Origin: Cytophagales bacterium
GTDB lineage: Bacteria; Bacteroidota; Bacteroidia; Cytophagales; Amoebophilaceae
Reading direction: 5' to 3'
Length of the DNA stretch: 8,079 bases
Assembly (NCBI GenBank): GCA_022360235.1
Contig: JAKSDE010000482.1
Location: 1-8,079 of the forward strand
The position numbers and the translations under genes are program-made. The notes under the pieces were generated by a model. The model was given only the letters and a program-made list of their open reading frames with translations, did no database searches and was not told the DNA's origin. Of the stretch, positions 1 to 8,079 are shown piece by piece (the first letter of the stretch is position 1; the number at the start of each line of letters is the position of its first letter).

Positions 1-953
1 GCCGCTTGGAGCGCTGTAGCTGTAATTTTATCTTGGGTCTGGGCTAAAATTACTTCTACTACTTTAGCCTTTCCCTGGCTAGCGGCTTTTTGTAAGGCTT
101 GGCCTAGTTCGTCAGCTGATAGGTTATTTAAAATGGCCTCCATAACGGCTGTCTTGGGTGGAGTAGTCTTGGCGGCTTGCTCTAATCCGTCTTGGATGGT
201 TTGTTGATCTATTTTAGCTTTTGTCTTAGCATTGCTGAGCAGACCTTCTATTACAGTTTTATTATTATCGGTTACCGCCTTCTTGAAGACCGTCTTCACA
301 TCCCAATGATCGAGAATCGCCTTTTCTACTTTTCCACGCCCCCCCTCTACAGCCTTCTGCCATGCGTTAGCAATGGCTGCATCTCCTACTTTTTGTTGCG
401 CTGCTTTATTCTTAAGGAGGGCTTCTACGATGGGTGCCTTATCATCATCCCCTGCTGCTGTGCTAAAGGTGCCTTGGAGCGCTGTAGCTGTAATTTTATC
501 TTGGGCCTGGGCTAAGATTACCTCTACTGCCTTGTCATGGCCCTTTGCGGCAGCGGCATCGAGGAAAATTTTTATATTGCCTGGAGTTAGTTGAGACTGT
601 GCACCTGGGTCAGCTAGAATGACACTTAAGGGAATAACTTTATTATTCTCTACACAATGAGCAACCACTTCTTGCAGTAGTTTGCTAGGATTGCTATTTT
701 TCGGTAAACACTCTTCTACTGCCCCACGGAGTTCGCTGAGTGTATCTCCAGGGCTCTCAGGAGGTTTACTAATAATTTCGTTTAGTTCGTCACTCTTCCC
801 CTCGGTTAGTAGCTGGATGATTTTCCCTACCATTAATTGTTCTCTATTACTCGGTTGTCCTCCAATAACTAAGGGTGCTTTTCTTCCACAGGCACCTATG
901 GCTGCTAAAAAGGTGATTAGAACGATTAATAGGGTCTTTATTCTGAGAGACAT
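1..953 (-). CDS. Gene A: ankyrin-like repeat lipoprotein, 3' end outside window
   Basis: I read this partial gene by hand: the frame is open from ATG at 953 to the window edge (317 codons, no stop). Residues 1-21 are a signal peptide (MSLRIKTLLIVLITFLAAIG) and the lipobox ends IGA-Cys22, so a lipid-anchored envelope protein is predicted. It aligns without gaps to genes B and C over about the first 260 residues, including Cys82 and the His99-Cys100 pair. From about residue 120 it consists of helical repeats of the form A-A-x-x-G-H-x-x-x-V-x-V-I-L, like the second helix of ankyrin repeats but without the TPLH signature. A module near residues 143-160 (ending AQAQDKITATALQ) recurs near 299-315 as AQTQDKITATALQ. 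There is no Shine-Dalgarno. The start is chosen because it gives a full signal peptide matching the paralogs. Function is unknown; a role in binding host or surface partners is inference. Confidence 0.93.
   Translation of the reverse strand, partial: MSLRIKTLLIVLITFLAAIGACGRKAPLVIGGQPSNREQLMVGKIIQLLTEGKSDELNEIISKPPESPGDTLSELRGAVEECLPKNSNPSKLLQEVVAHCVENNKVIPLSVILADPGAQSQLTPGNIKIFLDAAAAKGHDKAVEVILAQAQDKITATALQGTFSTAAGDDDKAPIVEALLKNKAAQQKVGDAAIANAWQKAVEGGRGKVEKAILDHWDVKTVFKKAVTDNNKTVIEGLLSNAKTKAKIDQQTIQDGLEQAAKTTPPKTAVMEAILNNLSADELGQALQKAASQGKAKVVEVILAQTQDKITATALQA
5..521 (-). repeat. Internal module duplication in gene A
   Basis: Bases 5-53 and 473-521 match at all but two positions (offset 468 nt, 156 codons, in frame). 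They encode the repeat-module core AQ(T/A)QDKITATALQ. Gene B at the equivalent place downstream has a different module, so this copy appears to have been inserted or converted within gene A. Only the two end segments are repeated, not the whole span. Confidence 0.85.
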
Positions 954-985
954 AATATATGTTTTAGTTTAATAAGTTATTTTCC
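954..985 (-). promoter_or_regulatory. Conserved A+T-rich leader of gene A
   Basis: On the minus strand the core TTAAACTAAA (plus 963-972) lies 9 nt before the ATG. The same 10-mer lies 11 nt before gene B and 12 nt before gene C, in otherwise A+T-rich sequence. No AGGAGG-like ribosome site is present. The block could be a translation-enhancing leader, as in organisms that do not use Shine-Dalgarno pairing, or simply a relic of duplication. Its TTAA also overlaps the stop codon of the orphan reading frame described for 969-1058. Confidence 0.45.
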
Positions 986-1058
986 TAGCTCTTGGTTCAT
1001 ATTCTTCATTCTGCTTCTTTACCATTTTAGCAGCAGCCTCTGATACGGCGGCTATCTT
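969..1058 (-). pseudogene. Orphan 29-codon tail, probably detached from gene B by a frameshift
   Basis: Immediately past the gene B stop, the neighbouring frame is open for 29 codons to a TAA at 969-971. The peptide begins KIAAVSEAAAKMVKK and ends PRARKITY, so it is rich in Ala, Lys and Glu like the family. It has no start codon of its own at the junction. Removing one base in the CCATAAG junction (around 1057-1060) would fuse it after YLATLP of gene B. Genes C and D end at the equivalent position without such a tail, so it could also be a remnant of another, deleted gene. The composition looks coding; the explanation is inference. Confidence 0.45.
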
Positions 1059-2967
1059 ATGGCAAGGTGGCTAAATAATCTTGAAGAGCCTGCTTTACAT
1101 CACTATTATTCGCAACTGTTATAGCATTCTCTATGTACTCTTTTTTCAGCCTGCCTTTCAAGTCTCCATCTGCTAGGATGGCATCTACAACTGCTTTTTC
1201 ATACCCCTCTTTTACGACTGCTATAAAGATAGATCTAAATACACTATCATCCCCCGCTGCTTTTAATGCCTTTATTATCAATTCACTATTTAATTTTGAC
1301 TTATCTGCATCTTTTAGGATAGCTTCCGCTACATTAGCCCTATTATCATCTGCAGCCTTCTGAAGTTGCTCACCTAGGGTAGAGGCATCTATCTTTTCTT
1401 TCGTTTTGGGGTTTGTAAGAATTTCTTCTACCACAGAAACCCTGCCCTTACTTACTGCTGAGGTAAACGTTTTTATTAAAAAAGCAGAATTTTCACCTAG
1501 CTTATCTACAATAGCTTTCGTTGCATCAGATTTATTATATTTTTTAGCAGCATCTAAGATGGAAACTAGTTTATCAGCTTTATCATCAGTATCTCTAACT
1601 AGCTCACCTACAATAGCTTCCGTTGCACCAGGGTATTTATCCTCTTTGTTAGCAGCATCTAATACGGAAACTAGTTCCTTAGTATCTTCAGCTAACTTAT
1701 CTACAATAGCTTTTTCTGCTTCTTTCTTACTATTCTTGTTAGCTGAGTCTAAGACAGCGGCTGTGTTATCAGGGTCACCACCTAACCTAGCTAGAATAGC
1801 TACTGCTGCATTAGGATACTTGTTATCTTTTTTAGCACCCTCTAATATGGTGGCTGTGTTATCAGGGTCGTTGCCTAACTCCTCTAAAATAGCTTTGACA
1901 GCATCGTCATTGCTATTCTTTTTAGCTGAATCTAGCAAAGCTACTTTCTTATCATCGTCTAACCCTTCTAAAATAGCTTTGACAGCATCGTCATTGCTAT
2001 TCTTTTTAGCTGAATGTAGTATGGTGGCTATCTTATCAGGGTCGTTACCTAACCCCTCTAGGATAGCTGCTACTACTTTATCATCTCCCTGGCTAGCGGC
2101 TTGTTGCAAGGCTTGGCCTAGTTCGTCAGCTGATAGGTTATTTAAGATGGCTCCAATGACAGCTGTCTTGGGAGGTTCAGCATTGGCGGCTTCTTTCAAT
2201 CCTTCTTGGATGGCTTGACTCCCTATTTCCGCTTTTTCCTCAGCATTGCTGAGTAGTTCGTCTACGCTAGTGGCATCTCCCTCGTCTACCGCCTTCTTGA
2301 ATGCCTGCTTCACATCCCAGTAAGCGAGAATCGCCTCTTTTACTTTTGTATAGTTATTCTCCGAGGCCTTTTTCAATGCGTTGGCAATGGCTGTATCTCC
2401 TACCTTTTCTTGCGCTTGTGCGTTGCTAAGGATGGCTGTTACGATGGGTGCCTTATCATCCTCGCCTGCTGCCGTGCTAAAGGTGCCTTGGAGCGCTGTA
2501 GGTGTAATTTTATCTTGGGCCTGGGCTAAGATTACCTTTACTGCCTTGTCGTGGCCCGCTGCGGCGGCGGCATCGAGGGAAGCTTTTATGTTGTCTGAAG
2601 TTAGTTGAGACTTTGCTCCTGCGTCAGCTAGAATGGCACTTAAGGCAAGCACTTCATTCCCCCCTGCACAATGAGTCACCACTTCTAACAGTAGTTGGTT
2701 AGGATCGGTATTGTTCGGTATACGTTTTCCTACTGCCCCGAGGAGTTCGCTGAGTGTATCTCCAGGGCTCTCAGGAGGTTTACTAATAATTTCGTTTAGT
2801 TCGTCACTCTTCCCCTCGATTAGTAGCTGGATGATTTTCCCTACCATTAATTGTTCTGTATTACTCGGTTGTCCTCCACTAACTGATGCTGCTTTTCTGC
2901 TACAGGCACCTATGGTTGCTAAAAAGGTGATTAGAACGATCAATAGGTTTTTTATTCTGAAAGACAT
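1057..2967 (-). CDS. Gene B: ankyrin-like repeat lipoprotein, 636 aa
   Basis: Complete gene with ATG at 2967 and TAA at 1057-1059. Residues 1-21 form a signal peptide and the lipobox is IGA-Cys22, with Ser at +2, so a lipoprotein not held at the inner membrane is predicted if a Lol-type Asp+2 rule applies. The N-terminal cassette (about 23-110) keeps His99-Cys100, but the first partner cysteine is Arg82. Residues 120-305 are solenoid repeats almost identical to gene A (for example ILNNLSADELGQAL at 274-287). Residues 306-490 are a B-specific series of about 28-34-residue units of the form I-L-x-x-A-K-K-N-S-N-D-D-A-V-K-A-I-L, partly generated by a recent 84-nt duplication. The C-terminus (about 500-636) resembles the ends of C and D only distantly (YIENAITVANNSDVKQAL). 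No catalytic motif is visible. It lies 119 nt after gene C and could be co-transcribed with it. Function unknown. Confidence 0.95.
   Translation of the reverse strand: MSFRIKNLLIVLITFLATIGACSRKAASVSGGQPSNTEQLMVGKIIQLLIEGKSDELNEIISKPPESPGDTLSELLGAVGKRIPNNTDPNQLLLEVVTHCAGGNEVLALSAILADAGAKSQLTSDNIKASLDAAAAAGHDKAVKVILAQAQDKITPTALQGTFSTAAGEDDKAPIVTAILSNAQAQEKVGDTAIANALKKASENNYTKVKEAILAYWDVKQAFKKAVDEGDATSVDELLSNAEEKAEIGSQAIQEGLKEAANAEPPKTAVIGAILNNLSADELGQALQQAASQGDDKVVAAILEGLGNDPDKIATILHSAKKNSNDDAVKAILEGLDDDKKVALLDSAKKNSNDDAVKAILEELGNDPDNTATILEGAKKDNKYPNAAVAILARLGGDPDNTAAVLDSANKNSKKEAEKAIVDKLAEDTKELVSVLDAANKEDKYPGATEAIVGELVRDTDDKADKLVSILDAAKKYNKSDATKAIVDKLGENSAFLIKTFTSAVSKGRVSVVEEILTNPKTKEKIDASTLGEQLQKAADDNRANVAEAILKDADKSKLNSELIIKALKAAGDDSVFRSIFIAVVKEGYEKAVVDAILADGDLKGRLKKEYIENAITVANNSDVKQALQDYLATLP
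1883..2015 (-). repeat. 49-bp exact direct repeat in gene B, 84-nt spacing
   Basis: Bases 1883-1931 and 1967-2015 are identical over 49 nt and lie exactly 84 nt (28 codons) apart. They encode the helix pair containing SAKKNSNDDAVKAILE. This in-frame duplication adds one 28-residue solenoid unit. The unit is shorter than the 32-33 residues seen in C and D. Confidence 0.92.
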
Positions 2968-3000
2968 AATAATTATAGTTTAGTTTAAAAAGTTATTTAA
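2968..3000 (-). promoter_or_regulatory. Conserved A+T-rich leader of gene B
   Basis: The shared core TTAAACTAAA (plus 2979-2988) is followed on the minus strand by CTATAATTATT and the ATG. TATAAT sits only 4 nt before the start, with TTAAAT 17 nt further upstream. That spacing resembles a sigma70 promoter that would give a leaderless transcript, but the TTAAAT box is not kept in genes A and C, so the promoter reading is weak. No Shine-Dalgarno. Confidence 0.4.
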
Positions 3001-3021
3001 TTCTCCTAGTAGTGTCCTACT

Positions 3022-3219
3022 TTGTCATTATCTAGTAATTTTTTATTTATTAACTTCTATTGATTCCGGTACTAAGTGTTCGCAGGTCAGGTGCTCTGAT
3101 AACCTGTAAGCAAATCCACTATCTCTGTATCTCCCTGTGCAATGTTTATAGCCTCTTCTATGTCTTCTTTTTGTAGCACTGATTGAACATACGGACTGTC
3201 TAAAATGTTCTTCAACAAC
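3022..3219 (-). repeat. 3' end and flank of gene C, duplicated at gene D (copy 1)
   Basis: About 198 nt covering the last 44 codons of gene C and 65 nt of downstream noncoding DNA match 5359-5558 with about 11 mismatches and one 2-nt indel. In the 65-nt noncoding part I count one mismatch plus the indel, so it is at least as conserved as the coding part. This argues for recent duplication or gene conversion rather than selection on protein. Confidence 0.88.
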
Positions 3220-5249
3220 TCAGTATTTCTTCCTTTTAAAGCAGCTGCATCTGGTCCCTCACTTAATTTCTTACCTGCTTCTACAGCAGCGTTAAGGCCG
3301 CTTTTTAGCGTCTCTCTATCTAATTCTTTTAATGTTGCATCGTCTTTGTCTTTGTATTTATCGTCTTTGTCTTTAAGGATAAATACCACTGTATTATTAT
3401 ACCACCCTTGCTGTGCAGCTTTTGTAAATACGTCTTTTATTATTTTAGGAGCTAATTTTGAGAGCTCGTCTAATGATACTTCCATTGCTAGGTAAACATT
3501 ATTCATCAGGCATGCCAACATCTCTATATTATTGGTACTTAATGCTCTGCCCACGATGGACTCCCCATTCACCGGAACCAAATTATCTACTACAGCCTTT
3601 GAGATCGGCCTGTTTACTGATTTTGCTAAGACAGTTGCTATATCCTGATCTGTGAGCTCAGCTTGGGCATTTTTCACAATAGCCCCTACTATATTCGTTT
3701 TACCACCTTCAACGGCTTCTTTGAATTCCTCACTTATTTTGGAAGTGCCTATTTTATCTTTCACACTTTCAATACGTAGTATTAATGATACTTTGCCTGC
3801 TTCATTATCCTTCACTTTATCTTCGAAAATAGCTATCACACCCTCTTGGCTTAGCTTATCTTTGGCATTATCTGCAATGGTTTGGGCTAAACCTTGATCG
3901 TTTTTTTCTACGGCTGCACGAAAGGCTTCGGATATGGTTTTTGGGTCTAAACTATTTAGGGCTCGCGGGTTTTTGGTGATATCCTCTACGAGTTGGCTGT
4001 TACCATTTTCTACCGCATTGATGAGGGCTTTTCCTACATCCCAGTGATCTAAAATGGCTTTTATTACAGCTTCCTTATCCTCTCCCTCGTTAGCAGCTTT
4101 TTTCAACGCTTCAACTATTACCTCTTCCTTTGGCTTAGGGTCAGCATAGGTCAGAATGGCTGCTACTACTTTATCTTTTCCCTCGTCAGCAGCTTTTTGG
4201 AACACTTCAACTACTACCTCTGCCTTTGGCTTAGGGTCAGCATTGGCCAGAATGGCTGCTACTACTTTATCTTTTCCCTCGTCAGCAGCTTTTTGGAACA
4301 CTTCAACTACTACCTTTTCCTCTGGCTTAGGGTCAGCATTGGCCAGAATGGCTGCTACTACTTTATCTTTTCCCTCGTCAGCAGCTTTTTGGAACGCTTC
4401 AGCTATTTCTTCTTCCCCTAGATTCTCTAGAATGGCCTTAACTACGTCTGTCTTGGCAGGTTCGTTGGCAGCTTCTTGCAGTCCATTTTGGACAGTTTGT
4501 TTATCTATTTTATCTTTTGTCTTAGCATGGCTTAACAAGGTTTTTACTCTATCTGCATTCCCATTGTCTATTGCCTCTATGAATGCTGACTGCGCGCTCC
4601 AATGATCGCGAATCGCCTTTTCTACTTCTCCAAGCCCCTCCTCTACAGCCCTCTGCAATGCTTCGGCAATGGCTGTATCTCCTACTTTTTTTCGCGCTTC
4701 TTTATTCCCAAGGATGGCTGCTACGAGGGGTGCCGTAGCATCTGCGGCAGCTGCCTTGCTAAAGGCGCCTTGGAGCGCTGTAGCTGGAATTTTATCTAGG
4801 GCCTGGGCTAAAATTACCTTTACTACCTCGTCATGGCCCGCTGCGACGGCTGCATCGAAGGAAGCTGTTATGTCGTCTGGGGTTAGTTTAGCCTGTGCCT
4901 CTGCGTTAGCTAGAATGACGCTTAAGGGAATATCCTTACCCTTCTCTGCGCAATGAAACACCACTTCTGACAGTAGTTTTTCACGATCGGTATTGTTCGG
5001 CATACATGCTCCTACTGCCCCACGGAGTTCACTGAGTGTATCTCCAGGGCTCCCAAGAGGCTCACTGATAAGTTTCTTTAGTTCGTCACTCTTCCCCTCG
5101 CTTAGTAGTTTGATGATTGTCTTTACCGTTGGTTGTCCTGTATTACTCGGTTGTCCTCCACTAACTGATGGTGCTCTTCTTCCACAGGCACCTATGGCTG
5201 CTAAAAAGGTGATTAGAACGATTAATAGGTTTTTTATTCTGAAAGACAT
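3087..5249 (-). CDS. Gene C: ankyrin-like repeat lipoprotein, 720 aa, mosaic of A/B-type 5' and D-type 3'
   Basis: Complete gene with ATG at 5249 and TGA at 3087-3089. The signal peptide is followed by IGA-Cys22. The cassette (23-110) has Cys82 and His99-Cys100. Solenoid repeats run from about 120. Residues 284-380 contain three near-identical 32-residue units (FQKAADEGKDKVVAAIL). A Trp-marked short connector, ILDHWDVGKAL, lies near 399-409. Residues 410-720 align with gene D's C-terminal half. A low-complexity Lys/Asp insert (KDKDDKYKDKDD, 626-637) is absent from D. The end, VLQKEDIEEAINIAQG onward, is nearly identical to D. The leader and signal peptide match A and B while the 3' flank matches D, so the gene looks chimeric. 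No enzyme motif. The repeat pattern is ankyrin-like, but HEAT- or other alpha-solenoid assignments are not excluded. Function unknown; envelope location is inferred from the lipobox. Confidence 0.95.
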   Translation of the reverse strand: MSFRIKNLLIVLITFLAAIGACGRRAPSVSGGQPSNTGQPTVKTIIKLLSEGKSDELKKLISEPLGSPGDTLSELRGAVGACMPNNTDREKLLSEVVFHCAEKGKDIPLSVILANAEAQAKLTPDDITASFDAAVAAGHDEVVKVILAQALDKIPATALQGAFSKAAAADATAPLVAAILGNKEARKKVGDTAIAEALQRAVEEGLGEVEKAIRDHWSAQSAFIEAIDNGNADRVKTLLSHAKTKDKIDKQTVQNGLQEAANEPAKTDVVKAILENLGEEEIAEAFQKAADEGKDKVVAAILANADPKPEEKVVVEVFQKAADEGKDKVVAAILANADPKPKAEVVVEVFQKAADEGKDKVVAAILTYADPKPKEEVIVEALKKAANEGEDKEAVIKAILDHWDVGKALINAVENGNSQLVEDITKNPRALNSLDPKTISEAFRAAVEKNDQGLAQTIADNAKDKLSQEGVIAIFEDKVKDNEAGKVSLILRIESVKDKIGTSKISEEFKEAVEGGKTNIVGAIVKNAQAELTDQDIATVLAKSVNRPISKAVVDNLVPVNGESIVGRALSTNNIEMLACLMNNVYLAMEVSLDELSKLAPKIIKDVFTKAAQQGWYNNTVVFILKDKDDKYKDKDDATLKELDRETLKSGLNAAVEAGKKLSEGPDAAALKGRNTELLKNILDSPYVQSVLQKEDIEEAINIAQGDTEIVDLLTGYQST
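3340..3374 (-). repeat. Short repeat encoding Lys/Asp low-complexity insert in gene C
   Basis: The 14-mer TCGTCTTTGTCTTT occurs at 3340-3353 and 3361-3374, a period of 21 nt (7 codons). It encodes KDKDD twice, within KDKDDKYKDKDD. At this position gene D has only a short AQYSSS segment, so the insert is C-specific and probably lies in a loop between helices. Confidence 0.85.
4155..4395 (-). repeat. 96-bp tandem repeat in gene C (about 2.5 near-exact copies)
   Basis: Copies start at 4155, 4251 and 4347, exactly 96 nt apart. The first two differ at about 3 of 96 positions. The third is identical for 49 nt (to 4395) and then diverges. A more diverged relative precedes them (about 4059-4154). 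Each unit encodes 32 residues, FQKAADEGKDKVVAAIL plus a loop such as ANADPKPEEKVVVEV. The 32-residue period and in-frame homogeneity show recent expansion of one solenoid unit. Confidence 0.95.
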
Positions 5250-5280
5250 AGTAATTATAATTTTAGTTTAAAAAATTGGT
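5250..5280 (-). promoter_or_regulatory. Conserved A+T-rich leader of gene C
   Basis: The core TTAAACTAAA (plus 5262-5271) lies 12 nt before the ATG, followed by ATTATAATTACT. It matches the leaders of genes A and B but not the leader of gene D. No Shine-Dalgarno is present. The remainder of the 161-nt gap to gene D holds the shared 3' flank (from 5359) and a weak hairpin around 5318-5337, with nothing else I can recognise. Confidence 0.45.
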
Positions 5281-5358
5281 AATGTGAATTTATAGATAGA
5301 TTTCATTAGTCTGAAAGGGTATCGGGAGAATTTGTTTCTCTCCTGAGTTAACACTCCC

Positions 5359-5558
5359 TTGTCATTATCTAGTCATTTTTTATTTATTAACTTCTATTGA
5401 TTATCCGGTACTAAGTGTTCGCAGGCCAGGTGTTCTGATAACCTGTAAGTAAATCCACTATCTCTGTATTCCCTTGTGCAATGTTTATAGCCTCCTCTAT
5501 GTCTTCTTTTTGTAGCACTGATTGAACATACAGACTGTCTAAAATGCCCTTCAACAAC
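5359..5558 (-). repeat. 3' end and flank of gene D, duplicated at gene C (copy 2)
   Basis: This is the counterpart of 3022-3219, about 94% identical by my count with one 2-nt indel. It spans the last 48 codons plus the TAG stop of gene D and about 52 nt of intergenic DNA. One transition separates the stop codons: TGA in C corresponds to TGG (Trp810, 5426-5428) in D, so D runs on through PANT to TAG at 5411-5413. Confidence 0.88.
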
Positions 5559-7855
5559 ATAGTATTTTCTGCTTGTTTTGAAACATCGCTTACTAACGCT
5601 TTACCTGCTTCTACCGCAGCGTTCAGGCTGCTTTTTAGCGTATCTCTATCTAATGAGCTACTGTATTGAGCTAAGATAAATTTTATTGCCTTATTATACC
5701 ATCCTTTCTTTGCAGCTTCCATAAATGCGGCTTTTATTTCTTCAGGCCGTAATCTTGTTAAGAAAAACTCTCTATGTTCTGAATTCATTATTAGGTAGCT
5801 ATTATTCATCAGGCCTGCCAATACCGTGGCCTCTTCTAATGCGTTTAATAAGATGGCTTCATCCCAATTATCTACTATAGCCTTTGAAGTCGGCTCATTT
5901 ACTGATGTTGCTAAGGCAGTTGCTATAAACTCATTGTTGAGCTTATCTTGGGCATTTTTCATAACAGCCTCTACTACACCCGAGGAACCATTTTCAGCGG
6001 CTTTTTGGAATACATCATTTATGTTGGTAGAGTCAATTTTATCTTTCACACTGTCAATTTTATCTTTCACACTGTCAATACTTAGCATTAATACTATTTC
6101 ACGTTCGCTCCTCTCTGCTTTTTTGAAAACATCCACTACATCCTCGTTTCCTAGCTTGTCTCCGGCGTTATTTACAATGGCTTCGACAAAGTCAGTTGCT
6201 AGGGTCGAAACAGCTTGGGAAAACGCTTTTTTTACATCTTCAGTTGTTAATTTACCCTTTACGTTAGCTAGGATAGCAACTACAGTAGCTCTATAATCTT
6301 CTTTTACAGCTGTACTAAAGGCTTGGGATGTGGTTGCTTGGCTTATCCTATCTTTGGCTGTACTATTGCCCACTATGATTTCTAAGATAGTGACTTGGGT
6401 ATTATCGCTGGCTGCTTGCATGAAAGCACTTTCAAGCTCTTCGTCTTTTACCTTTTCAAGGGCTTTCGGGGTGTTGATGATAGCGTTTACGAGTTCGCTG
6501 TCCCCACTCTCTACCGCCTCGATGAGGGGTTGGCCTGGCTTCCACTTACCTAAAATGACTGCTATTAAATCTGTATCACTCTTTTCTATTGCTGCTATGA
6601 ATGCTTTCTTCGTGTGCCAATTGTTGAGGATTGCCTTTTCTACATTTGCATAGTTCCTATCAGCAGCACTCTTCAATGCTTGGGCAACGACATCATCCTG
6701 TATTATAGCTTTTACTTCTTCATGGCCGAGGATGGCTTTTACTAGGGAGGCCCTAGAATCATCCTCCACTGCAAACTCAAAGGCCTCTATGATGCTCTTA
6801 CTCTCTACTCTATTTGAGGCACTGTCTAAAATTATTTTTACTATCCTGCTATAGACCTTTTCGGCGGCTATATCGAAGGCACTATCTATAGCAGCACGCT
6901 CTATTTTATCTAAAGCCCCGTTTTCATCTAAAGCCGCGCCTAAAATTGCGCTTGTTATATTGTTACGGTTCTTTCTGGCGGCTGTCTTGAGGGCAGTTCC
7001 CATATCGTCCTTTGTAATTTTACTTAGGGCCTTTTCTAAAATTTGGTCTGCTACCTCTCTATTGCCCTTTTCGGTGGCTGTATTGAGGGCCCTTCCTATA
7101 TCCTCCTCCGTAATTTTACTTAGGGCCTTTTCTAAAATAAGGCTTGCTGTCCCTGTATGGTTCGTTCGGATGGCTATATTGAAGGCATCTCCTGCAGCGT
7201 CATTCCCTACTTTATCTGAAGCCTTGTCTAAAATTGCTCTTACTGCATTGGCAAAGCCCTCCCTGGCGGCTGTCTTGAGGGCATCTCCTATATCCTCCTC
7301 TGTAATTTTACTTGAGACCTTTTCTAGAATAAAGTCTACCATCCCTGTATGGCCCTTTTGGGTGGCCGTAATAAGGGCACCTCCTGCAGCATCATTCTCT
7401 ACTTTATCTGAAGCCTTGTCTAAAATTGTTTTTACTACCTGGTGTTTATCTTCTCCGACGGCTGTAATGAGGGCATCTCCTATGTCTTTTGAGGTTAGCT
7501 TATTCTTTGCATCTTCGTTATCTAGAATGGCGCTTAGGGAAATATCTTTACCCTTCTCTGCACAATGAGCTACCACTTCTGACAGTAGTTGGTTAGAATC
7601 GGAATTTTGCGGCAAACATTTTTGTACTGCCCCATGGAGTTGGAGGAGGAGTGTATCTTCAGAACTCTCAGGAGGCTTACTGATAAGTTCCTCTAGTTCT
7701 TCCCTCTTCCCCTCGTTTAGTAGTGTTATGATGTGGGTTACCTCTCGCTGCCCCTCCCTCGCTACACTTGATTGTAGCCCTCTTTTTTTCCAGGAACATT
7801 GGGTTGCTAAAACGGTGATTAGAGCTGTTATTATAATTTTTATTCTGAAACTCAT
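5411..7855 (-). CDS. Gene D: largest ankyrin-like repeat exported protein, 814 aa
   Basis: Complete gene with ATG at 7855 and TAG at 5411-5413; it is first in transcription order. The signal peptide (MSFRIKIIITALITVLAT) is followed by Gln19-Cys20: the IGA of the paralogs is replaced by a single Gln, so the lipobox is non-canonical and lipidation is uncertain. The cassette keeps Cys80 and His97-Cys98. Residues 125-310 alternate two unit types, ILDKASDKVxNDAAG and ILEKxxSKITEEDIG, giving a two-unit super-repeat of about 64-66 residues. Two Trp connectors in tandem (ILNNWHTKKAF near 409, ILGKWKPGQPL near 434) divide the solenoid. Residues 444-814 align with gene C's C-terminal half, with a duplicated SVKDKID at 595-608. 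The last five residues (WPANT) are read through a codon that is a stop in C. No catalytic motif is visible. Probably a binding scaffold exported to the envelope; the partner is unknown. Confidence 0.95.
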   Translation of the reverse strand: MSFRIKIIITALITVLATQCSWKKRGLQSSVAREGQREVTHIITLLNEGKREELEELISKPPESSEDTLLLQLHGAVQKCLPQNSDSNQLLSEVVAHCAEKGKDISLSAILDNEDAKNKLTSKDIGDALITAVGEDKHQVVKTILDKASDKVENDAAGGALITATQKGHTGMVDFILEKVSSKITEEDIGDALKTAAREGFANAVRAILDKASDKVGNDAAGDAFNIAIRTNHTGTASLILEKALSKITEEDIGRALNTATEKGNREVADQILEKALSKITKDDMGTALKTAARKNRNNITSAILGAALDENGALDKIERAAIDSAFDIAAEKVYSRIVKIILDSASNRVESKSIIEAFEFAVEDDSRASLVKAILGHEEVKAIIQDDVVAQALKSAADRNYANVEKAILNNWHTKKAFIAAIEKSDTDLIAVILGKWKPGQPLIEAVESGDSELVNAIINTPKALEKVKDEELESAFMQAASDNTQVTILEIIVGNSTAKDRISQATTSQAFSTAVKEDYRATVVAILANVKGKLTTEDVKKAFSQAVSTLATDFVEAIVNNAGDKLGNEDVVDVFKKAERSEREIVLMLSIDSVKDKIDSVKDKIDSTNINDVFQKAAENGSSGVVEAVMKNAQDKLNNEFIATALATSVNEPTSKAIVDNWDEAILLNALEEATVLAGLMNNSYLIMNSEHREFFLTRLRPEEIKAAFMEAAKKGWYNKAIKFILAQYSSSLDRDTLKSSLNAAVEAGKALVSDVSKQAENTMLLKGILDSLYVQSVLQKEDIEEAINIAQGNTEIVDLLTGYQNTWPANT
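6032..6073 (-). repeat. 21-bp exact tandem duplication in gene D
   Basis: Bases 6032-6052 and 6053-6073 are identical, followed by six more matching bases. They duplicate the heptapeptide SVKDKID in frame. Gene C has a single SVKDKI at the equivalent place, so the D copy is derived. It is probably a slippage event in a helix or linker. Confidence 0.92.
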
Positions 7856-7983: not shown

Positions 7984-8079
7984 GTTCTGGGTTCCGGGTT
8001 CTGGGTTCCGGGTTCTGGGTTCTGGGTTCCGGGTTCTGGGTTCCGGGTTCTGGGTTCCGGGTTCTGGGTTCCGGGTTCC
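7984..8079. repeat. GGGTTCY heptamer tandem array, continuing past the window
   Basis: A partial unit (GTTCT) is followed by 13 complete heptamers, GGGTTCC or GGGTTCT, from 7989 to the window end. C and T forms alternate to make a 14-bp higher-order unit, broken once by two T forms in a row and once by two C forms at the end. The plus strand therefore carries regularly spaced GGG runs with 4-nt loops, a G-quadruplex-type pattern. It lies about 130 nt upstream of the gene D start and contrasts sharply with the A+T-rich DNA beside it. Nothing in it suggests coding. Total length is unknown because it is cut off. Confidence 0.97.

What the first reader, a model, noticed from the sequence alone, without database searches (positions are those of the whole stretch)
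1..7855. Tandem family of four variable, repeat-built exported proteins
Four adjacent same-strand paralogs share a signal peptide and N-terminal cassette but differ in length (at least 317, 636, 720 and 814 aa) and in the number and kind of helical repeats. I do not recognise the family by name. The arrangement suggests a locus that generates diversity in exported alpha-solenoids, as expected for host- or competitor-facing proteins. The paralogy and repeats are directly visible; the diversification role is inference.
Basis: partly seen in the sequence, partly recalled or inferred. Interest (0 to 1): 0.75.

Follow-up and report, generated by a model that had tools for sequence, protein, structure and literature searches.

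The report
Fast-diverging ankyrin lipoproteins in an endosymbiont
Four neighbouring genes of a bacterium that apparently belongs to the amoeba- and insect-symbiont family Amoebophilaceae encode related proteins of unusual ankyrin repeats behind predicted export signals; they are likely membrane-anchored binders of host proteins, and their amino acids have changed about as fast as silent DNA sites, unlike a housekeeping gene.

The parts
3..953 (-). ORF1: divergent ankyrin-type lipoprotein, at least 317 aa, 3' end missing (contig end)
   Evidence: Ank_2 21 bits, below the 27.3 cut-off
1057..2967 (-). ORF2: divergent ankyrin lipoprotein, 636 aa, 16 core-repeat hits
   Evidence: (Ank_2 43.5 bits)
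3087..5249 (-). ORF3: divergent ankyrin lipoprotein, 720 aa, 16 core-repeat hits; predicted helical solenoid
   Evidence: Ank_2 33.1 bits; mean pLDDT 82.4
5411..7855 (-). ORF4: divergent ankyrin protein, 814 aa, 18 core-repeat hits; predicted ankyrin-type solenoid
   Evidence: Ank_2 56.9 bits; mean pLDDT 82.3
888..953 (-). ORF1 signal peptide with lipobox AIGAC
   Evidence: sequence; scan
2902..2967 (-). ORF2 signal peptide with lipobox TIGAC
   Evidence: sequence; scan
5184..5249 (-). ORF3 signal peptide with lipobox AIGAC
   Evidence: sequence; scan
7796..7855 (-). ORF4 signal peptide ending LATQC; glutamine at -1 is atypical for a lipobox (recalled rule)
   Evidence: sequence; passes only the relaxed scan
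1875..2038 (-). ORF2 private array: 84-bp (28-codon) unit, 2.0 copies, 87% matches
4075..4416 (-). ORF3 private array: 96-bp (32-codon) unit, 3.6 copies, 92% matches
6980..7483 (-). ORF4 private array: 96/192-bp (32/64-codon) units, 78-82% matches
3090..3776 (-). C-terminal module of ORF3 shared with ORF4 (dN/dS 2.09 over 192 aligned codons)
5429..6061 (-). C-terminal module of ORF4 shared with ORF3
3017..3065 (.). 3' flank of ORF3, 94% identical to the 3' flank of ORF4 (5354-5402)
   Evidence: family D16
954..1056 (.). spacer upstream of ORF1; the element TTAAACTAAA near the start codon recurs upstream of ORF2 and ORF3, not ORF4 (seen by eye)

Best explanation
The locus is a tandem family of divergent ankyrin-repeat proteins with lipoprotein-like signals in a genome that fits Amoebophilaceae, likely anchored in the cell envelope and likely displayed toward the host cell as protein-binding solenoids whose differences are likely favoured by selection. 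Steps: (1) shown by sequence: tandem paralogs, a shared signal and cassette, and a separate in-frame unit array in each complete paralog. (2) predicted: Sec export, lipidation at the cysteine, a helical ankyrin-type solenoid without the usual TPLH motif. (3) inferred: exposure to the host cytosol, where the sister symbiont Amoebophilus asiaticus lives without a host membrane (PMC8831229, passage), and binding of host proteins by the solenoid. (4) inferred: selection favours change at non-core positions, so duplication plus in-frame unit gain and loss yields a set of different binders. That this happens on a strain time scale is untested.
For: Ankyrin identity. Lipoprotein-like starts go with ankyrin ORFs in this genome: 38 of 54 against 4 of 97 others on the same contigs, three ankyrin relatives having been taken out of an original 7 of 100 (Fisher p=1.7e-18), and 3 of 103 non-ankyrin ORFs on 60 other contigs. 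Family placement: relative G009 has 1,884,364 bp, the published size of A. asiaticus 5a2 (PMC3486910 table 1, passage); the best-matching listed PEPCK relatives are genera such as Rufibacter, Adhaeribacter and Pontibacter (that these are Cytophagales is recalled); 210 Ank_2 matches in this genome. Divergence: pairwise ML dN/dS 1.04-1.48 for the six window pairs, housekeeping control 0.007-0.062 in six PEPCK pairs, one of them saturated; codons 89-258 of ORF1-3 give 1.61, non-core 1.86 against core 1.06 (two against one omega p=0.011; non-core against 1 p=0.0023), contrast weaker or reversed in 8 of 8 slid masks; ORF3/ORF4 C-terminal module 2.09, p=0.019. Frame kept: 165 random substitutions in the first 783 bases of ORF2 left no stop in only 52 of 5000 trials. 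Arrays private to each complete paralog. A relative in another genome has one extra 32-residue unit, beside gaps of 1-6 residues. A block of the same cassette sits before a possible Ulp1/SENP-like region in contig C51.
Against: Two rate classes with omega fixed at 1 fit the N-terminal data as well as the positive-selection site model, and gene-wide omega there is 1.43, only marginally above 1 (2dlnL 4.1). The core positions are not below 1 either (1.06, p=0.82), so purifying selection on the fold is not seen in the codon data. The three pairs of C406 with window genes give 0.73-0.78 (none significantly below 1), and eleven other ankyrin-type pairs in the genome, these three included, give 0.33-1.32, so high dN/dS is neither constant in the family nor special to the locus. 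The residues after the cysteine are basic, unlike the acidic surface-export signal known in Bacteroidetes (PMC5080379). ORF4 lacks a standard lipobox. Foldseek alone ranks other helical-repeat chains, not ankyrins, first for the ORF3 model. No strain comparison exists. P-values are nominal, from several tests.
Confidence: 0.55

Rival explanations
1. Ordinary ankyrin-gene expansion under relaxed constraint: the paralogs are kept as solenoids but drift almost neutrally, as redundant genes in a small-population symbiont would, with no diversification function.
For: dN/dS near 1 rather than far above it; the rate-variation model with omega 1 fits as well as the selection model; core positions also evolve at omega near 1; other ankyrin-type pairs in the genome behave alike.
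Against: Reading frames are intact although random change left the ORF2 start without a stop in only 52 of 5000 trials; non-core omega 1.86 exceeds 1 (nominal p=0.0023) while core omega does not; ORF3/ORF4 C-terminal omega 2.09, p=0.019.
Confidence: 0.3
2. Envelope lipoproteins that face the periplasm and serve structural or housekeeping roles, not host contact.
For: The post-cysteine residues are basic, not the acidic export signal known from Capnocytophaga and Bacteroides; I have no surface evidence.
Against: A cassette block is joined to a possible Ulp1/SENP-like region in C51 and the same kind of N-terminal tag is on a NACHT-HEAT protein; both look eukaryote-like. Outside the own genome the family search found only weak, repeat-level matches, in 7 of 20 other family genomes, which does not fit a housekeeping gene.
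Confidence: 0.1
3. Effectors injected by the contractile T6SSiv apparatus of Amoebophilaceae.
For: Such a system is described in A. asiaticus and its substrates are unknown (PMC8831229, passages). Whether this genome has it was not tested.
Against: Lipoprotein-type signals on three of four proteins point to export across the inner membrane first.
Confidence: 0.05

Closest known systems
Ankyrin-repeat proteins (Pfam Ank_2, PF12796) of amoeba and insect symbionts such as Amoebophilus and Cardinium
   Same: Repeated helix-turn-helix units of about 32 residues, profile and fold matches, large genomic expansion
   Different: No TPLH-type tetrapeptide in any of the four proteins; predicted repeat helices mostly of 10-14 residues with short linkers; outside the own genome only weak repeat-level matches in 7 of 20 other family genomes
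Degenerate-ankyrin proteins of the same genome (contigs C406, C316, C41, C132, C89)
   Same: Same repeat style; C41 and, by eye, C89 have lipoprotein-like starts
   Different: C316 and the start of C41 and C89 keep canonical repeats; open frames up to 1624 aa
Partial protein MI674_07025 of a Cytophagales MAG (P0005)
   Same: 159 of 298 aligned residues identical to contig C406
   Different: One extra 32-residue unit and gaps of 1-6 residues; contig only 2038 bases
Designed ankyrin repeat proteins (DARPins)
   Same: Best sequence-profile matches and among the top fold matches of ORF4
   Different: Engineered, canonical consensus

Membership tests
Ankyrin-repeat proteins | Profile match above the curated cut-off | tested here: met
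   ORF2 43.5, ORF3 33.1, ORF4 56.9 bits against 27.3; ORF1 (truncated) 21, below
Ankyrin-repeat proteins | Ankyrin solenoid fold | tested here: met
Ankyrin-repeat proteins | TPLH consensus tetrapeptide (frequent hallmark, not required; recalled) | tested here: not met
   0 matches to [TS][PA]LH in ORF1-4; hence described as divergent
Bacterial lipoproteins | N-terminal signal with lipobox ending in cysteine | tested here: met
   ORF1-3 AIGAC/TIGAC; ORF4 LATQC passes only the relaxed scan; my own rule, not SignalP
Bacterial lipoproteins | Lipid modification and membrane location | not testable with these tools
   needs protein chemistry
Bacteroidetes surface lipoproteins (LES) | K-(D/E)2 or polar plus acidic run right after the cysteine | tested here: not met
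   CGRKAP, CSRKAA, CGRRAP, CSWKKR have no acidic run; motif from passages of PMC5080379. The motif of this family could differ
Antigenic or phase-variation loci | Variation between strains of one species | not testable with these tools
   no genome of the same genus was returned; protein search gave one clear relative and one weak hit besides the own genome
Amoebophilaceae | Grouping with A. asiaticus and other reduced, ankyrin-bearing genomes | tested here: met
   same family label as G009, whose length equals that of A. asiaticus 5a2; the family name is inferred from that length

The most novel reading that the evidence does not exclude
In this symbiont lineage the ankyrin arsenal is delivered mainly as lipoproteins carrying a short address tag after the cysteine (C-[ST]-K-[RK]-K-x-E here, a different one such as CGGGFDNNPL in A. 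asiaticus), so that the bacterium wears its effectors on its surface in the host cytosol; this tandem locus is a generator of TPLH-less ankyrin binders within that coat.
Probability: 0.3. Interest if true: 0.75.

Novelty: new variant of a known kind. Interest (0 to 1): 0.5.

Why it matters
A. [quoted passage not shown] A lipoprotein route with a lineage-specific tag would answer that with a testable sequence rule. The locus also offers a natural set of ankyrin solenoids that lack the standard turn motif and differ in their arrays, useful for studying how repeat binders diversify.

Tried and rejected
Positive-selection site model: M2a against M1a gave 2dlnL 25.7 and 25.8 (0 of 60 null simulations as high; 23.7 with the better-fitted M1a), but a two-rate model with omega fixed at 1 has a lower AIC (3563.3 against 3566.5), so this test is not used as proof. 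The last codons of the alignment are out of register and were left out from then on. The M0 fits and the two M0 site-model fits were stuck near omega 1 by a bad starting step and are replaced. Separate fits before the crash gave core 0.79 (10 positions) or 0.49 (7 positions) and rest 1.97; the joint fits are the ones used.

Gene conversion: difference density changes along ORF1-3 (maximum chi-square p=0.0002 in three of three pairs). Longest-run tests were below 0.05 in 5 of 9 on all variable sites but only 1 of 9 on synonymous sites (o3/o4, 11 sites), so recombination is suggested, not shown; stronger constraint on the N terminus is an alternative.

Joining ORF1 with contig C406: both run off contig ends and no exact end overlap of 20-199 bases exists.

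Strain comparison: genome contigs with ORF3 gave no relative; the family search gave only weak repeat-level hits outside the own genome, in 7 of 20 others; the order search with P0005 found weak hits in 6 of 389 others. Protein searches scored only about 8,000 capped candidates each.

Fold of ORF3: Foldseek alone ranks a designed circular repeat, spliceosome, transportin and PPR chains first, TM-scores 0.25 or less on the query in the listed rows; not used.

Transposase and MFS paralogs as an in-genome dN/dS control: 9 mostly partial matches and 1 match, not usable. PEPCK pairs from Hymenobacter and Pontibacter were used instead.

Ulp1/SENP reading of C51: E 0.22 by sequence and no Pfam hit at 0.01; catalytic pattern seen by eye only.

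Literature: searches. I saw no statement that ankyrin proteins of Amoebophilaceae are lipoproteins, judging from listings, starts of abstracts and the passages read. The original A. asiaticus genome paper was not among the listed rows and I did not read it; most subscription papers are not in the library.
Full report
What is there. The window is a whole contig (C217, 8079 bases) of a 1.87 Mb genome in 528 contigs. Four minus-strand ORFs fill it. ORF1 runs off the low end of the contig; a heptamer array (GTTCTGG/GTTCCGG, 7984-8079) ends the other side.

Relatedness within the locus. ORF1, 2 and 3 align gap-free over the first ~260 codons at 79-83% nucleotide identity; ORF4 aligns in blocks over the first ~165 codons, mostly at 63-70%. 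ORF3 and ORF4 also share a C-terminal module and the 3' flank: 171 bases at 91% and 49 bases at 94%. So the modules are mosaic: N cassette in all, C module in two, and in between a private array in each complete gene: 84 bp x2.0 (ORF2), 96 bp x3.6 (ORF3), 96/192 bp (ORF4). The array units inside the ORFs are multiples of three. The ORF3 units match at 92%, closer than the paralogs are to each other on average, so that array is probably younger than the gene duplications (inference).

Whose genome. The best-matching listed PEPCK relatives of contig C51 are genera such as Rufibacter, Adhaeribacter and Pontibacter (near relatives may be left out of that list). Ank_2 matches number 210 in the own genome and 197 in G009. 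The family is known for this (PMC3196728 and PMC8831229, passages). So the presence of many ankyrin genes is not new.

Export. ORF1-3 carry a lipobox (IGAC); ORF4 ends LATQC, which is atypical. In the window plus 44 own contigs, chosen mostly because they hold ankyrin or transposase hits, 38 of 54 ORFs with at least three ankyrin hits and a complete 5' side had a lipoprotein-like start, against 7 of 100 other ORFs of 150 aa or more; three of those seven are window ORF2, ORF3 and the C51 protein, so 4 of 97 without them. An earlier, slightly different rule gave 36 of 54 and 10 of 137. On 60 contigs picked by number, 3 of 103 non-ankyrin ORFs of 120 aa or more did. In G009, 17 of 29 ankyrin ORFs and 12 of 77 others did, from 21 regions picked for ankyrin hits. 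My scan is a simple rule, not SignalP. After the cysteine, 32 of 38 own ankyrin lipoproteins have two neighbouring basic (or basic-glutamine) residues within +2 to +5; 0 of 17 in G009, where 5 of 17 begin CGGGF- or CGEGF-. The tag is not exclusive to ankyrin proteins: 2 of the 4 other lipoproteins on those contigs and 1 of the 3 on the 60 contigs fit it; that last one, L277, is a 1228-aa NACHT-HEAT protein. The surface-export signal known in Bacteroidetes is acidic (PMC5080379, passages), so surface display is not supported by analogy and remains inference.

Divergence. Pairwise maximum-likelihood dN/dS for the six window pairs is 1.04-1.48; only ORF3/ORF4 differs from 1 (p=0.033). Of twelve other pairs tried in the genome one had no usable block and eleven gave 0.33-1.32; the three of C406 with window genes gave 0.73-0.78, none significantly below 1. 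Similar code gives 0.007-0.062 for six PEPCK pairs from Hymenobacter and Pontibacter, one saturated. Over codons 89-258 of ORF1-3, omega is 1.61; split by a mask of ten repeat-core positions that I chose from the repeat consensus it is 1.06 (core) and 1.86 (rest), two against one omega p=0.011, rest against 1 p=0.0023; the core is not below 1 (p=0.82). Sliding the mask by 1-4 residues either way gave no comparable core deficit in 8 of 8 (one, +2, was significant in the opposite sense). The ORF3/ORF4 C-terminal module gives 2.09 (p=0.019; 75 replacement codons, 12 synonymous-only). Against: the codon site model M2a beats M1a but a model with two overall rates and omega 1 does as well; p-values are nominal, from several tests. 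Random substitutions at the observed number (165 in 783 bases) leave the ORF2 start free of stops in 52 of 5000 trials, so the frames are probably kept by selection.

Relatives elsewhere. Searches of 5.8 billion proteins, with about 8,000 candidates scored each, returned, besides the window's own proteins and C406, one partial protein of a Cytophagales MAG (P0005, E 2.6e-42) and one weak hit (P0006, E 5.8e-6). P0005 aligns with the C-terminal half of C406 (159 of 298 identical) and has one 32-residue insertion, one repeat unit long, plus gaps of 1-6 residues. This is one case of unit gain or loss between genomes, not a population measure. C51 holds a 71-codon block 74% identical in nucleotides to C406 followed by a region with weak similarity to SENP1 (E 0.22), so the cassette may be reused in an effector that acts on the host ubiquitin-like system (inference).

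Mechanism. Most likely: Sec export and lipidation place ankyrin solenoids in the envelope, exposed to the host cytosol in which A. asiaticus is known to live without host membrane (PMC8831229); the solenoids bind host proteins; tandem duplication, in-frame unit change and replacement-rich divergence outside the packing core give different binders. Sequence steps are shown; export, fold and lipidation are predicted; host contact and benefit are inferred.

Verdict. The system is a new variant of a known kind. The most interesting lead lies outside the window: the lipoprotein rule and tag across the ankyrin repertoire.

Noticed in passing
own-genome contigs fetched as L022-L029 and L161-L196, and the window: 38 of 54 ankyrin ORFs look like lipoproteins, 32 of those 38 with two basic (or basic-glutamine) residues right after the cysteine; A. 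asiaticus ankyrin ORFs are also often lipoprotein-like (17 of 29) but with a different post-cysteine sequence.
   Followed up: partly
L277:1185-4868 (contig C201): A 1228-aa NACHT-HEAT protein carries the same kind of signal and tag (CSKRKVELYE) as many ankyrin lipoproteins.
   Followed up: partly
L027:1013-3565 (contig C51): 851-aa open frame: lipoprotein-like start, a block of the window's cassette, a linker of biased composition, then a region weakly like SENP1/Ulp1 proteases (E 0.22).
   Followed up: partly
L023:3496-8031 (contig C316): One 1512-aa open frame starts with degenerate repeats and ends with canonical TPLH ankyrin repeats, a possible link between the two repeat styles.
   Followed up: no
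window 7984-8079: Heptamer array GTTCTGG/GTTCCGG at the contig end; similar arrays in L306, L162, L290 and L297, 4 of 104 other own contigs scanned.
   Followed up: partly
L022:750-1889 and L022:2143-2673 (contig C406): The contig with the fifth relative also holds a canonical ankyrin lipoprotein and an ORF that looks Nudix-like (recalled from the motif, not searched).
   Followed up: no
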